A DNA stretch of 43,094 bases from Myxococcales bacterium (lineage in GTDB: Bacteria; Myxococcota_A; Polyangia; Polyangiales; Polyangiaceae): assembly GCA_020430845.1 (NCBI GenBank), contig JAGQJA010000334.1, positions 1 to 43,094 of the forward strand, given 5' to 3'. The first letter of the stretch is position 1. Each line of letters opens with the position of its first letter. This document shows positions 982 to 42,515 of this stretch, piece by piece. The position numbers and the translations under genes are program-made. The notes under the pieces were generated by a model. The model searched no databases and was not told where the DNA came from. It saw only the letters and a list, made by a program, of their open reading frames with translations.

Positions 982-987
982 AGGTTA
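982..987 (-). promoter_or_regulatory. possible -10 box TAACCT, 8 nt before the lipoprotein start
   Basis: This TANNNT hexamer ends 8 bases before the ATG at 973 and there is no Shine-Dalgarno. Its TAA is also the stop codon of the preceding gene, so chance is more likely here than for the other boxes of this kind. Confidence 0.25.
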
Positions 988-1911
988 CACCACCTCGACG
1001 TGGAGCGTCGCGCCACCGTCACTCTTGGGCGCGAGGTGGGCCTCGAGCTTGCGCCAAGCCCCCGCCCCCCGCGCGCGCTCGGCCGTCACCAGCTCGGTCG
1101 CGGCGTCGAGCAGCTCACGCGTGGCGTCGACGGCGCGCAGGCGGCCCCCCGCGTCGACGGCCGCGAGCTGCACCATGAGCCGCGTCTGACGCGCCGCCGG
1201 ATCGATCGTCAGCGTGAGGACGGCCTGCGAGAACCCGGGGACGTCCCGCGCGAGCAGCTCGTGCGCGAGCGACGCGACCGGAAAGAACGCGGCGCGGTCG
1301 GGCTCGCGCGGTCGGTCGGCGGGCGGCGGCGCGCTCCGCTTGGCGGCGGGCCCCTCGGGAGACGTGGTCGATCGCGATCGCCCGGGCCGCTCCGAGGCCG
1401 GAGGGGACGAGGCGCGGCGGACCGGAGGCGGGGGCACCGAGACGTGCAACCCGCTCGGACGCGGCGAGTCGTACATGCCGTAGAACTTCACGGTGCCGTC
1501 GCCCGGCTCCTCGACGAACAGATCGCGCGCGCCCGTGAGCGCCAGCCCCAGCTGCGTGAGCACGTCGGCGTCCTCGGGCGTGACGCCGCCCACCACGCTC
1601 ATGCAGAGCTGCGGGACCTCGCGCTGCTGGCCCTCTTTGAAGATGCGCTCGCCGTACGTGGAGTACGAGCTCGACGTGCCCGCCCACGCCCAGCGAAAGA
1701 TGCTGTCACGCAGGTAGTACGTCGCGAGCAGCTCCGCGTACCAGCGGCCGACGATCTCGCCGTGCTTCGTCTGGCGTGTCACGCGTTGCGCGACGGAGTC
1801 GAACCGCAGCTCCTCGCTCCGCAGACCGCGGAGCTCGGCGACGTCGCGGAGATCGAGGACCTGCGCGTCGAGCGTCTCTCGGAGCCTCCGCGTCGCGTCG
1901 TCGAGGGGCAT
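985..1911 (-). CDS. conserved hypothetical protein with a Trp/Tyr-rich N-terminal domain
   Basis: The product has 308 residues from ATG 1911. An in-frame ATG at 1926 is rejected because it lies inside a TATGCT box that looks like the -10 element. Residues ~1-145 form one domain with an aromatic core (GRWYAELLATYYL, then FRWAWAG, then KFYGMYD). Its W-A-W pattern faintly recalls uncharacterised DUF6882-type proteins; this is a weak guess. Residues ~150-210 are a Pro/Ser/Arg-rich linker. Residues ~211-308 are a second alpha/beta domain ending HVEVV. There is no signal peptide and no membrane segment, so it is probably cytosolic. The gene is followed 11 bases later by the lipoprotein gene on the same strand. 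Function is not known. Confidence 0.7.
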   Translation of the reverse strand: MPLDDATRRLRETLDAQVLDLRDVAELRGLRSEELRFDSVAQRVTRQTKHGEIVGRWYAELLATYYLRDSIFRWAWAGTSSSYSTYGERIFKEGQQREVPQLCMSVVGGVTPEDADVLTQLGLALTGARDLFVEEPGDGTVKFYGMYDSPRPSGLHVSVPPPPVRRASSPPASERPGRSRSTTSPEGPAAKRSAPPPADRPREPDRAAFFPVASLAHELLARDVPGFSQAVLTLTIDPAARQTRLMVQLAAVDAGGRLRAVDATRELLDAATELVTAERARGAGAWRKLEAHLAPKSDGGATLHVEVV

Positions 1912-1921
1912 CGCTGGGCCG

Positions 1922-1927
1922 AGCATA
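1922..1927 (-). promoter_or_regulatory. TATGCT -10-like box, 10 nt before start at 1911
   Basis: TATGCT matches TANNNT and ends 10 bases before ATG 1911. It overlaps the alternative upstream ATG (1926), which is why the downstream start is preferred. No Shine-Dalgarno is visible. Confidence 0.45.
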
Positions 1928-2014
1928 CCGGCGGCCGAAAGGCCCGTCGACCGCGCAACGGGCTACCCAACCCAGCCCGAACCCTAGTACCGTGTCCGGC
2001 CAGGAGACGCCTTC

Positions 2015-2458
2015 ATGTACCTGCCCACCCGCCGCACGATTTTCGCCCTCGCCGTGTTCTCCTTCATGCCCGCGCTCGCTGCGTGCCCCAAGAAGGACCC
2101 GCCGGCGAAGGTCGACCCGCCCCCGCCTCCGCCTCCCGAGCCGGAGGCCGGTCCGGTCGATCTCGCGCCCATCGAAGAGGACGCCGGCGACGACGCGGAC
2201 GCCGCCGAGGCCGGGCCGAAGAAGTACACGGGCACCTACAACCCGAACGTCGCGCGCCTCAAGCAGTGCTGCGGCGCCCTCCGTGCCGAGGCCAAGCGTA
2301 TGGGCGCGTCCCCCGAGGCGGGCATGTTCCTGCAGGCCGCCGCGTCGTGCGACGGCCTCGCCGCCCAAGCCGGCGCAAAGGGCACGGCGCCCGAGCTCGG
2401 CGTCGTCCGCAACCTGCTCGCGGGCCGCACCGTGCCGCCCGTCTGCCGCGGGTTCTAG
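2015..2458 (+). CDS. small predicted lipoprotein
   Basis: The product has 147 residues with a type II signal peptide and lipobox LAAC (lipidated Cys24). A long Pro/Glu/Asp/Ala linker follows (residues ~25-75: polyproline, then EAG and DAGDDADAAEAG-like acidic repeats). The C-terminal ~70 residues form a small helical domain with several Cys (CCGALR, ASCDGLA, VCRGF) that could form disulfides. The start is supported by CAGGAG at 2001-2006, 8 bases before the ATG, and by TACCGT at 1988-1993 as a possible -10 box for a leadered transcript. Its stop codon shares a CTAG palindrome with the stop of thiL on the other strand. Function is unknown; it is probably periplasmic and membrane-anchored. Confidence 0.8.
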   Translation: MYLPTRRTIFALAVFSFMPALAACPKKDPPAKVDPPPPPPPEPEAGPVDLAPIEEDAGDDADAAEAGPKKYTGTYNPNVARLKQCCGALRAEAKRMGASPEAGMFLQAAASCDGLAAQAGAKGTAPELGVVRNLLAGRTVPPVCRGF

Positions 2459-3432
2459 TCGCCGGCCGCGTCAGGGCCGCCGCCCGCGAAGTGGTCGAAT
2501 CCTCGGACCACTTCGCGGTCGACGCGGCCATCGGCGTGCTCCACCCACACGCGCGCCTCCCCCGCAGCGCAGGGCTCGACCCGCCCGACGCGCGTGAAGG
2601 CTGCGCCAGCCCCTGCAGCGGCCGCGAAGAGCACGACGTAGTCCTCGCCGCCGCCGAGCGCGAGCGCGAGCGCTTCGGCTCCGATCGCGCGCGCCCCGCG
2701 TGACAGCGCCGGTCCCCCGAGCGCGCGGAGCGCCTCGGCGTCGAACGTGACGCGCACGCCGCTCGCCTCGGCGAGGTGGGACGCGTCGCGCGCGAGGCCG
2801 TCCGAGATGTCGATCGCGGCGCTCGCCTCGGCCGCGATCACGTCCGAGAGCACCGTATGCGCCGAGGGCCGTCGCCACGCCGCGACGCACGTTGGGTCCT
2901 CTTCTCCGTCGCCGCGGAGCATGCGCATCCCGGCGGCCGCGAGACCTACGGGACCGGTGAGAAAGAGCGCGTCGCCCGGCCTGGCGCCGGCGCGGGTCAC
3001 GGGTCGCGCGGCGACACCGAGCAGCGTCGTGGTGATCGCGAGCTCGCGCCCGCGCGCGAGGTTGCCTCCGACGACGGGCGCTCCGACCCGCGCGGCCGCG
3101 TCACGCTGACCCCGGGCGAGCTCCTCGAGCTCGGCGTCGGAGATCGCCGACGGCAGAGTGAGCGCGCTCAACGCCGCCAGCGGGCGGGCGCCCATCGCCG
3201 CGAGATCGCTCGCCGCCGCCATGAAGCTCCGCCAGCCCACGTCCTCGAGCGAGAGCCAGCGTCGATCGAAGTGCGTGCCCTCGACCTGCGCGTCGACCGT
3301 CCACACCAGAGGCCCGTCCGGGGCGCGCAGGACGGCGGCGTCGTCGCCGATGCCGTGCGTGACGCGCGCGTCCGAGGTCGACAAGAGCGCGCGCAGCAGC
3401 GCGATCCGCTCGAGCTCGGTCGACGCGCTCAC
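2455..3432 (-). CDS. thiL: thiamine-monophosphate kinase ThiL
   Basis: ThiL phosphorylates thiamine monophosphate to thiamine diphosphate with ATP, the last step of cofactor synthesis in the cytosol. The 325 residues match the usual family length. Visible motifs in order: GIGDDAA (residues 27-33, Mg/nucleotide binding), a DAQVEGTHF segment (47-55), DLAAMGARP, GGNLARG, DISDGLARDASHL and GGEDYVVLF near the C-terminus. All are typical of the PurM/ThiL fold. The GTG start at 3432 overlaps the TGA of the upstream sensor kinase in a GTGA, so translation is probably coupled. This is the third gene of the operon that starts at 5596. No other thiamine genes are in the window, so thiL appears carried by a signalling operon rather than a pathway operon. 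Confidence 0.93.
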   Translation of the reverse strand: MSASTELERIALLRALLSTSDARVTHGIGDDAAVLRAPDGPLVWTVDAQVEGTHFDRRWLSLEDVGWRSFMAAASDLAAMGARPLAALSALTLPSAISDAELEELARGQRDAAARVGAPVVGGNLARGRELAITTTLLGVAARPVTRAGARPGDALFLTGPVGLAAAGMRMLRGDGEEDPTCVAAWRRPSAHTVLSDVIAAEASAAIDISDGLARDASHLAEASGVRVTFDAEALRALGGPALSRGARAIGAEALALALGGGEDYVVLFAAAAGAGAAFTRVGRVEPCAAGEARVWVEHADGRVDREVVRGFDHFAGGGPDAAGD

Positions 3433-42035: not shown

Positions 42036-42043
42036 GGGTGGCG

Positions 42044-42049
42044 AGCGTA
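42044..42049 (-). promoter_or_regulatory. TACGCT -10-like box, 8 nt before start at 42035
   Basis: This TANNNT box on the minus strand ends 8 bases before ATG 42035. It lies in the 16-base gap after the small lipoprotein gene. Confidence 0.45.
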
Positions 42050-42051
42050 CC

Positions 42052-42501
42052 CTATTCGACGACCACCGTGCCGCCCGGACAACCGGAGACGGTGTAGGCG
42101 AACGATCCCTTGGCGCTGATGGCCACGTCGCCCGACACGAGCCCGCGCTTGGCCGTCGCCCAGAGCTTTCCGTCGGCGGCCCCGCGGATCTCGTGGTCGA
42201 CGGAGTCCTCGTTCTTGAAGCCGAAGTCGGCGTTGACCGCGACGGTCACGCTGGCCGGGCTGACGACGGGCGGACGGTCCGAGGCGCCTTGACCGCAGAG
42301 CGTGCCGCCCTGCGCCGCGCGGATGGTGATCACCGTCTGGGCCGGCGCCAGATCGGCGACGCACCGACCGAGGTAGACGCGTTGGCCCTCGGGGCACTCG
42401 GTCGCGTTCGGATCGCCGGCCAGGTGGCAGCCGGCGGCGAGCAGCGCCGCGGTGCTGCAGACGACCCGTAGAGCTCGACCGCGAGAGTTGGGCACCACCA
42501 C
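42052..42501 (-). CDS. small lipoprotein with a cupredoxin-like C-terminal domain
   Basis: The 149-residue product from GTG 42501 has a type II signal peptide (RALRVVCSTAALLAAGC), a Cys-containing linker (ECPEGQRVYLGRC) and a beta domain. The domain has FGFKNEDSVDHEI and FAYTVSGCPGG, the spacing of His and Cys ligands in cupredoxins, but the later His/Met of a full copper site are absent. It may be a non-metal beta-sandwich. TACGAT ends 8 bases before GTG 42501; two further GTG codons directly follow and a TTG lies upstream at 42528, so the exact start is uncertain. The TACGAT box favours 42501. Function is unknown. It lies upstream of the EEP-family gene on the same strand. Confidence 0.7.
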   Translation of the reverse strand: MVVPNSRGRALRVVCSTAALLAAGCHLAGDPNATECPEGQRVYLGRCVADLAPAQTVITIRAAQGGTLCGQGASDRPPVVSPASVTVAVNADFGFKNEDSVDHEIRGAADGKLWATAKRGLVSGDVAISAKGSFAYTVSGCPGGTVVVE

Positions 42502-42509
42502 GATGATCC

Positions 42510-42515
42510 ATCGTA
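42510..42515 (-). promoter_or_regulatory. TACGAT -10-like box, 8 nt before start at 42501
   Basis: This TANNNT box on the minus strand ends 8 bases before GTG 42501 and helps choose that start over an upstream TTG. Confidence 0.45.

What the first reader, a model, noticed from the sequence alone, without database searches (positions are those of the whole stretch)
982..42515. Recurrent TANNNT box 6-10 bases before start codons: probable leaderless genes
I saw TANNNT hexamers ending 6 bases before the starts at 17170, 17509, 23034 and 24464; 8 bases before 973, 17019, 32301, 42035 and 42501; 9 before 36682; and 10 before 1911 and 32445. None of these starts has a Shine-Dalgarno. Other genes (2015, 5596, 5693, 7854, 8822) have a similar box further away plus a good Shine-Dalgarno. 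At ~30% A+T a random TANNNT in such a 5-base window should occur in only a few percent of starts, so 12 of about 26 is a strong excess (rough own estimate). The boxes also resolved two start choices (1911, 42501). The box at 982 contains the stop codon of the previous gene, so it counts less.
Basis: partly seen in the sequence, partly recalled or inferred. Interest (0 to 1): 0.75.

Follow-up and report, generated by a model that had tools for sequence, protein, structure and literature searches.

The report
Leaderless-gene promoters in a myxobacterium
Many genes of this uncultured myxobacterium appear to have their promoter so close to the start codon that the messenger RNA would begin at or almost at the first codon, a way of starting genes that is already known from other bacteria.

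Summary
All 12 TANNNT boxes lie where stated and the pattern is genome-wide: in 60 other contigs, with starts chosen by codon usage alone, 72 of 550 starts have TANNNT 6-10 bases upstream; shuffles give 7.8 +/- 2.3. The peak has a sharp edge (spacer 5: 1; spacer 6: 25 of 586 starts). In an unbiased word scan TANNNT ranks first, Shine-Dalgarno words next. Boxes avoid Shine-Dalgarno and operon-internal genes and carry extended -10 and -35 traces. Orthologues in same-genus genomes keep the box in 38 of 52 cases (seven other words 0-10), gatB in 11 of 11 though its start shifts; in 15 genomes of other genera gatB lacks it at 6-12 bases. The boxes are most likely sigma-70-type -10 elements of leaderless or nearly leaderless mRNAs. 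This is a known kind: a 2011 survey predicted leaderless genes in 8 of 33 delta-proteobacterial genomes. No mRNA 5' end was mapped. gatB and 17509 are the strongest sites; 973, 1911 and 42501 are weak.

The parts
982..987 (-). TAACCT box, spacer 8 to ATG 973 (gene 338-973); overlaps the stop codon of the upstream gene
   Evidence: 0 of 3 orthologues aligned from residue 21-24, which show TATAAG near the same place (by eye); weak
1922..1927 (-). TATGCT box, spacer 10 to ATG 1911 (gene 985-1911); contains the in-frame ATG 1926 that a codon-based caller picks
   Evidence: 1 of 6 orthologues has a box at 6-12; weak
17028..17033 (-). TAGCGT box, spacer 8 to ATG 17019 of gatB (15571-17019)
   Evidence: Pfam GatB_N from residue 7; box in 11 of 11 genus-mate orthologues; strong
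17158..17163 (+). TAGGTT box, spacer 6 to GTG 17170 of a DivIC-family (septum formation initiator) gene, divergent from gatB
   Evidence: box in 7 of 11 orthologues, there at spacers 9-12
17497..17502 (+). TAGTCT box, spacer 6 to GTG 17509 of an MshEN-domain gene
   Evidence: box in 8 of 8 strictly aligned orthologues, all at spacer 6 or 7; strong
23041..23046 (-). TATCCT box, spacer 6 to ATG 23034 (gene 22036-23034)
   Evidence: 1 of 1 strictly aligned orthologue; four of six orthologues do not align at the N terminus
24452..24457 (+). TACCAT box, spacer 6 to ATG 24464 of a molybdopterin oxidoreductase gene
   Evidence: 1 of 1 orthologue in genus mates
32310..32315 (-). TAGCAT box, spacer 8 to GTG 32301 (TPR-protein gene 31327-32301)
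   Evidence: start also chosen by the codon model; no orthologue in the fetched genus-mate loci
32429..32434 (+). TATGAT box, spacer 10 to ATG 32445 of a class-III aminotransferase gene; contains the in-frame ATG 32430
   Evidence: box in 3 of 3 close orthologues at spacers 7, 10, 11; in the one with spacer 11 the in-box ATG is out of frame
36692..36697 (-). TATCTT box, spacer 9 to ATG 36682 (gene 36134-36682)
   Evidence: start also chosen by the codon model; no orthologue in the fetched genus-mate loci
42044..42049 (-). TACGCT box, spacer 8 to ATG 42035 of an endonuclease/exonuclease/phosphatase gene
   Evidence: box in 6 of 10 orthologues at spacers 6-8
42510..42515 (-). TACGAT box, spacer 8 to GTG 42501 (gene 42052-42501)
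   Evidence: 0 of 1 strictly aligned orthologue; 2 of 3 looser ones have a box before an ATG 7-9 codons further in; weak

Best explanation
The TANNNT boxes are -10 elements of primary sigma-factor (sigma-70-type) promoters that sit directly before start codons. RNA polymerase would start 6-8 bases past the box, at or within a few bases of the start codon, giving leaderless or nearly leaderless mRNA whose ATG/GTG is bound by the ribosome without a Shine-Dalgarno. In the sampled part of the genome 13% of all called starts carry the box at 6-10 (about 12% after subtracting chance), and 17% of those with an upstream gap over 30 bases (61 of 362, 6.1 expected). Shown: box excess, position, strand, SD avoidance, gene context, -35 and extended -10 traces, conservation within the genus. 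Inferred: the exact mRNA 5' end, the sigma factor and the mode of translation.
For: Independent sample (60 contigs, window left out): 72 of 550 starts; dinucleotide shuffles 7.8 +/- 2.3, maximum 13 in 100; internal in-frame ATG/GTG 17 of 9,265; TANNNT the word with the largest excess (80 seen, 16.7 expected). Sharp edge: spacer 5, 1; 6, 25; 7, 14; 8, 19 of 586 starts including the window. SD in 5 of 72 box genes against 177 of 478 others, P = 3e-8; box at 57 of 343 starts with gap > 40 but 6 of 158 co-directional starts with gap <= 20. Own sample plus genus mates: TG before the box in 28 of 131 (7.0 expected); TTG at spacers 16-18 in 12 of 131 against 0-2 at each other spacing from 13 to 21; boxes farther upstream (14-40) show the same traces (TG 9 of 65, 3.5 expected; TTG at 16-17 in 10 of 65); the reverse-strand word ANNNTA has no clear excess (8, 5.5 expected; mates 5, 5.0 expected). 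Orthologues: 38 of 52 keep TANNNT against 0-10 for seven other words; gatB 11 of 11, 17509 8 of 8, while the gatB start shifts by 0-5 codons. Negative controls: E. coli 1 of 31, high-GC Azospirillum 0 of 52. Acidobacteria, where leaderless genes were predicted: 21 of 97, 4.1 expected.
Against: No RNA data: a box at spacer 9-12 may give a leader of 2-5 bases. Samples meant as positive controls were weak: Deinococcus plasmids 4 of 46 (2.0 expected), Streptomyces plasmid 0 of 27. gatB has the box in 11 of 11 genus mates but at 6-12 bases in 0 of 15 genomes of other genera of the order (one has it at 13), so conservation does not reach beyond the genus. 973, 1911 and 42501 lack conservation; 17170 keeps the box in 7 of 11, at longer spacers, and 42035 in 6 of 10. 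The -35 trace is present in a minority. The genus-mate stretches were chosen for their synteny with the window, so their 43 of 198 is not independent of the window's genes.
Confidence: 0.92

Rival explanations
1. The boxes are promoter -10 elements, but the true start codons lie further downstream, so that ordinary leaders with a Shine-Dalgarno exist.
For: Start calls in this high-GC genome are error-prone; in two of three orthologues of 42501 the box-linked ATG lies 7-9 codons further in.
Against: Domain homology begins at residue 7 for gatB and 42035 (26 for 17170, 58 for 17509) and many orthologue alignments begin at residue 1-5; box and SD exclude each other; starts further downstream would not give a sharp edge at 6 bases.
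Confidence: 0.05
2. The boxes are A+T-rich translation signals (unstructured or S1-binding stretches), not promoters.
For: They lie close to the start codon on the sense strand; A+T-rich non-SD signals are reported in other groups (Zheng 2011, passages).
Against: Rare at operon-internal genes (6 of 158); fixed T, A, T letters rather than general A+T richness (words made of the same letters 15-43 against 109); extended -10 and -35 traces upstream.
Confidence: 0.02
3. Chance or composition artefact: stop codons of upstream genes (TAA/TAG) and selective choice of starts.
Against: Nine-fold excess over shuffles in an independent sample with starts chosen without the box, and commoner at starts with a gap over 40 bases than at close co-directional genes where stop codons are near; conservation in orthologues.
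Confidence: 0.01

Closest known systems
TA-led leaderless genes of bacteria (Zheng et al. 2011, PMC3160421; passages seen)
   Same: Same word TANNNT, same place (around 12 bp counted from the first T), high-GC form with uninformative middle letters; delta-proteobacteria listed with 8 of 33 genomes, average 15.8% (5.7-20.6%), in line with the share found here.
   Different: The words Sorangium, Myxococcus and Anaeromyxobacter do not occur in its main text, so I cannot say which genomes the 8 are. This genome is an uncultured one; conservation in orthologues was added here.
-10 region adjacent to ORFs in Deinococcus-Thermus (Zhong et al. 2025, PMC12340547; passages seen)
   Same: TANNNT directly before ORFs as a -10 element driving leaderless transcription, with a spacing requirement, an optional -35 region and suspected wrong start annotations.
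   Different: There shown by mutation and expression tests; here sequence evidence only, in another phylum and at a lower share (about 30% of ORFs there). That paper also scanned species across the bacterial domain; its figures by phylum were not seen here and may include myxobacteria.
Bidirectional promoters with a symmetric -10 (Warman et al. 2021, seen only as described and cited in PMC10268837, passages)
   Same: Overlapping -10 elements on opposite strands, as in ANNNTANNNT between the divergent orthologues of 5596/5693.
   Different: Here both directions may serve leaderless genes, with start codons 26-27 bp apart; transcription start sites are not mapped and one partner would start with TTG.

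Membership tests
TANNNT-led leaderless genes (Zheng 2011; Zhong 2025) | TANNNT with its first T about 12 bp before the start codon, in excess over background | tested here: met
   Commonest spacer 6 = first T at -12; 72 of 550 against 7.8 by shuffling
TANNNT-led leaderless genes (Zheng 2011; Zhong 2025) | No Shine-Dalgarno at these genes | tested here: met
   SD in 5 of 72 box genes against 177 of 478 others, P = 3e-8
TANNNT-led leaderless genes (Zheng 2011; Zhong 2025) | Box behaves as a promoter -10 element (first genes, -35 or extended -10, strand-specific) | tested here: met
   Gap > 40: 57 of 343, co-directional gap <= 20: 6 of 158; TG and TTG traces, no clear reverse-strand excess
TANNNT-led leaderless genes (Zheng 2011; Zhong 2025) | mRNA 5' end at or within a few bases of the start codon | not testable with these tools
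   No RNA data for this organism
TANNNT-led leaderless genes (Zheng 2011; Zhong 2025) | Leaderless mRNA is translated | not testable with these tools
   Needs ribosome profiling or a reporter
Bidirectional promoter (Warman 2021) | Overlapping -10 elements on both strands between divergent genes | tested here: met
   ANNNTANNNT with spacers 5-11 on both sides in 4 of 55 divergent pairs of genus mates (all one orthologous locus) and 1 of 101 pairs of the own sample; not in the window itself
Bidirectional promoter (Warman 2021) | Two mapped start sites 7-25 bp apart | not testable with these tools
   No RNA data; 23 bp expected if both start 7 bases past the box (own arithmetic)

The most novel reading that the evidence does not exclude
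In this genus promoters and start codons can be packed so tightly that one 10-bp symmetric element (ANNNTANNNT) serves as the -10 of two divergent leaderless genes with start codons 26-27 bp apart, and orthologous genes switch between Shine-Dalgarno-led and leaderless expression among close relatives (5693 is SD-led in the window, leaderless by sequence in 4 of 5 mates).
Probability: 0.4. Interest if true: 0.5.

Novelty: new member of a known kind. Interest (0 to 1): 0.35.

Why it matters
If true, about one in six genes with room for their own promoter would be expressed without a leader in this lineage, so leader-based control and SD-based start prediction would not apply to them, and automatic annotation would misplace starts: all 4 of 4 called ATG starts lying in a T-ATG-N-T box have an in-frame ATG/GTG 12 or 15 bases downstream, against 31 of 333 ATG starts overall. 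Orthologues that differ in mode within one genus would let one test how leaderless and SD-led expression interconvert.

Tried and rejected
16S rRNA for naming the organism: no match in the own genome or 28 relatives, so placement rests on GatB: 69% identity to Myxococcales bacterium 68-20, whose contig (755,370 bases) matches G002:C5 in length and coordinates. Sigma-70 consensus scan of window 1-20000: 0 promoters; my reading is that the consensus demanded there is too AT-rich for these boxes. Plasmid samples as positive controls did not show the signal clearly. Shared symmetric boxes as a general feature: only 1 of 101 divergent pairs in the own sample. Papers: searches on leaderless genes in myxobacteria (one search showed 20 of 54) listed none whose title or shown abstract start treats it; in the main text of a Myxococcus xanthus Cappable-seq paper (PMC8844925, passages) the words leaderless and untranslated do not occur; its tables were not read.

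Decoy words with alternative starts allowed (within 6 score units): TANNNT 109 of 550 against 15-43 for five words of the same letters; GANNNT reached 76, CANNNT and TGNNNT 44, TCNNNT 42; overlap with Shine-Dalgarno words may explain GANNNT (not tested).

Rows dropped: 'open' starts and starts within 80 bases of a contig end; words with few occurrences in the word scan; orthologues whose match began after residue 25 or after residue 8; loci under 6,000 bases. The looser orthologue count (start -30 to +12 codons, spacers 5-12, TTG allowed) was 43 of 59 for box genes and 22 of 100 for the others.
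Full report
What was checked. The window is contig C169 of an 8.56-Mb, 806-contig genome (88.7% complete). Its GatB is 69% identical to that of Myxococcales bacterium 68-20 (NCBI lineage Myxococcota), whose contig corresponds to G002:C5, a genome of the same genus. All 12 boxes of the finding are in the sequence with the stated spacers and without a clear Shine-Dalgarno. 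Four of the five 'farther box plus SD' genes are as described; 8822 has no box in the 50 bases shown.

Is it more than chance? '12 of about 26' overstates the case because boxes helped to choose starts. I therefore took the first up to 20 kb of contigs 1-60 of the same genome, called genes with a codon-usage model that does not look upstream, and counted. With the window included, TANNNT counts by spacer were 4: 2, 5: 1, 6: 25, 7: 14, 8: 19, 9: 9, 10: 9, 11: 3, against a background of 1.6 per position (586 starts). Without the window, 72 of 550 starts have a box at 6-10; 100 dinucleotide-preserving shuffles gave 7.8 +/- 2.3, at most 13; internal in-frame ATG/GTG codons gave 17 of 9,265. Among three-letter words with or without gaps, spanning up to seven bases, TANNNT had the largest excess (80 seen, 16.7 expected) and the Shine-Dalgarno words GGA, GNAG, AGG came next.

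What it is. Box genes rarely have a Shine-Dalgarno (5 of 72 against 177 of 478). Boxes occur at 57 of 343 starts with more than 40 bases to the next gene but at 6 of 158 co-directional starts with 20 bases or fewer. Aligning 109 boxes from start-tolerant calling shows G at -2 in 65% and T at -23 and -22 in about a third. With codon-model starts of the own sample and genus mates, TG precedes the box in 28 of 131 (7.0 expected) and TTG stands at spacers 16, 17, 18 in 3, 4, 5 of 131 against 0-2 at the other spacings from 13 to 21; boxes farther upstream (14-40 bases) show the same traces, as promoters of leadered genes should. The reverse-strand word shows no clear excess. These are marks of a sigma-70-type -10 element, placed so that transcription would begin at or next to the start codon. 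Counts closer than 6 bases stay at background level, as expected if a closer box would cut the start codon off the transcript (inference).

Conservation. For gatB each of 11 genus-mate genomes has TANNNT 6-12 bases before a start, although the start codon shifts by 0-5 codons; in 15 genomes of other genera of the order the box is not found at 6-12 bases (one has it at 13), so the conservation is genus-wide only. For 17509, whose protein is 37-49% identical, 8 of 8 strictly aligned orthologues have the box, all at 6 or 7 bases. With looser rules the counts are 43 of 59 and 22 of 100. By gene: 17019 11 of 11, 17170 7 of 11 (spacers 9-12 there), 17509 8 of 8, 32445 3 of 3, 42035 6 of 10, 24464 1 of 1, 23034 1 of 1, 1911 1 of 6, 42501 0 of 1; 973 0 of 3 with looser alignment; none in the fetched loci for 32301 and 36682. 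In the genome sample all 4 of 4 called ATG starts of the form T-ATG-N-T have an in-frame ATG/GTG 12 or 15 bases on (31 of 333 ATG starts overall), so such calls are probably boxes taken for starts.

Spread. Boxes at 6-10 at starts with gap > 30, expected numbers in brackets: own 61 (6.1) of 362, genus mates 43 (4.5) of 198, the latter from stretches chosen for synteny with the window; other genera of the family 4 (1.1) of 66, 1 (0.1) of 27, 6 (0.9) of 43, 7 (0.9) of 33, 3 (0.8) of 41; other families of the order 13 (3.0) of 87, 5 (2.1) of 57, 6 (0.4) of 34, 0 (0.0) of 34. In two of these (G015 with 6 of 43, G018 with 5 of 57) a decoy word did as well or better, so the signal is not shown there. 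In the named gatB loci (groups by record title): Acidobacteria 21 (4.1) of 97, Desulfobacterota-type 16 (19.4) of 221, other 'Deltaproteobacteria' 4 (7.2) of 61, Nitrospirae 6 (4.2) of 66, Gammaproteobacteria 7 (6.0) of 36, Myxococcota 2 (0.8) of 29. Controls with the same script: E. coli 1 (2.2) of 31, high-GC Azospirillum 0 (2.2) of 52, Deinococcus plasmids 4 (2.0) of 46, Streptomyces plasmid 0 (0.6) of 27. The last two were meant as positive controls and do not show the signal clearly in such small samples.

Known or new. TANNNT-led leaderless genes are a described class; Zheng et al. 2011 (PMC3160421, passages) list delta-proteobacteria with 8 of 33 genomes and 15.8% on average, and Zhong et al. 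2025 (PMC12340547, passages) showed by experiment that the box acts as a -10 region in Deinococcus. This is a new, well-supported case of that class. What I did not find in the listings is the orthologue conservation in this lineage, the switching between modes within a genus (5693), and the shared symmetric box between divergent orthologues of 5596 and 5693 in four genomes, where one partner would start with TTG.

Noticed in passing
L249 near 15887-15902, L254 1985-2013, L255 11031-11058, L263 17424-17451 (orthologues of window 5596/5693): Divergent start codons 26-27 bp apart share a symmetric ANNNTANNNT, a -10 box for each strand with spacers 6 and 10-11; the 5596 partner would start with TTG. 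In the window the same pair has Shine-Dalgarno sequences and boxes farther away.
   Followed up: partly
L003 3504-3534: One divergent pair of the window's own genome with a 29-bp gap and an ANNNTANNNT between the two starts (spacers 10 and 9).
   Followed up: no
L109, L111, L115, L135, L138, L143, L146, L166: Acidobacterial gatB genes have a TANNNT box 6-11 bases before an in-frame ATG in 8 of the 10 acidobacterial loci, so gatB seems leaderless there too.
   Followed up: partly
window 17019-17170 and 32301-32445: Two divergent gene pairs in the window in which both partners have a box next to the start codon.
   Followed up: no
window 27512 and 29650: Near-boxes before these starts (GATACT 6 bases and TAAGAG 10 bases upstream, by eye); related TA-words lacking the last T recur before the same genes in genus mates.
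   Followed up: no
orthologues of the box genes in genus mates: The reverse-strand word ANNNTA also appears before 10 of 52 orthologue starts of the box genes, more than the other control words (0-5); unexplained.
   Followed up: no
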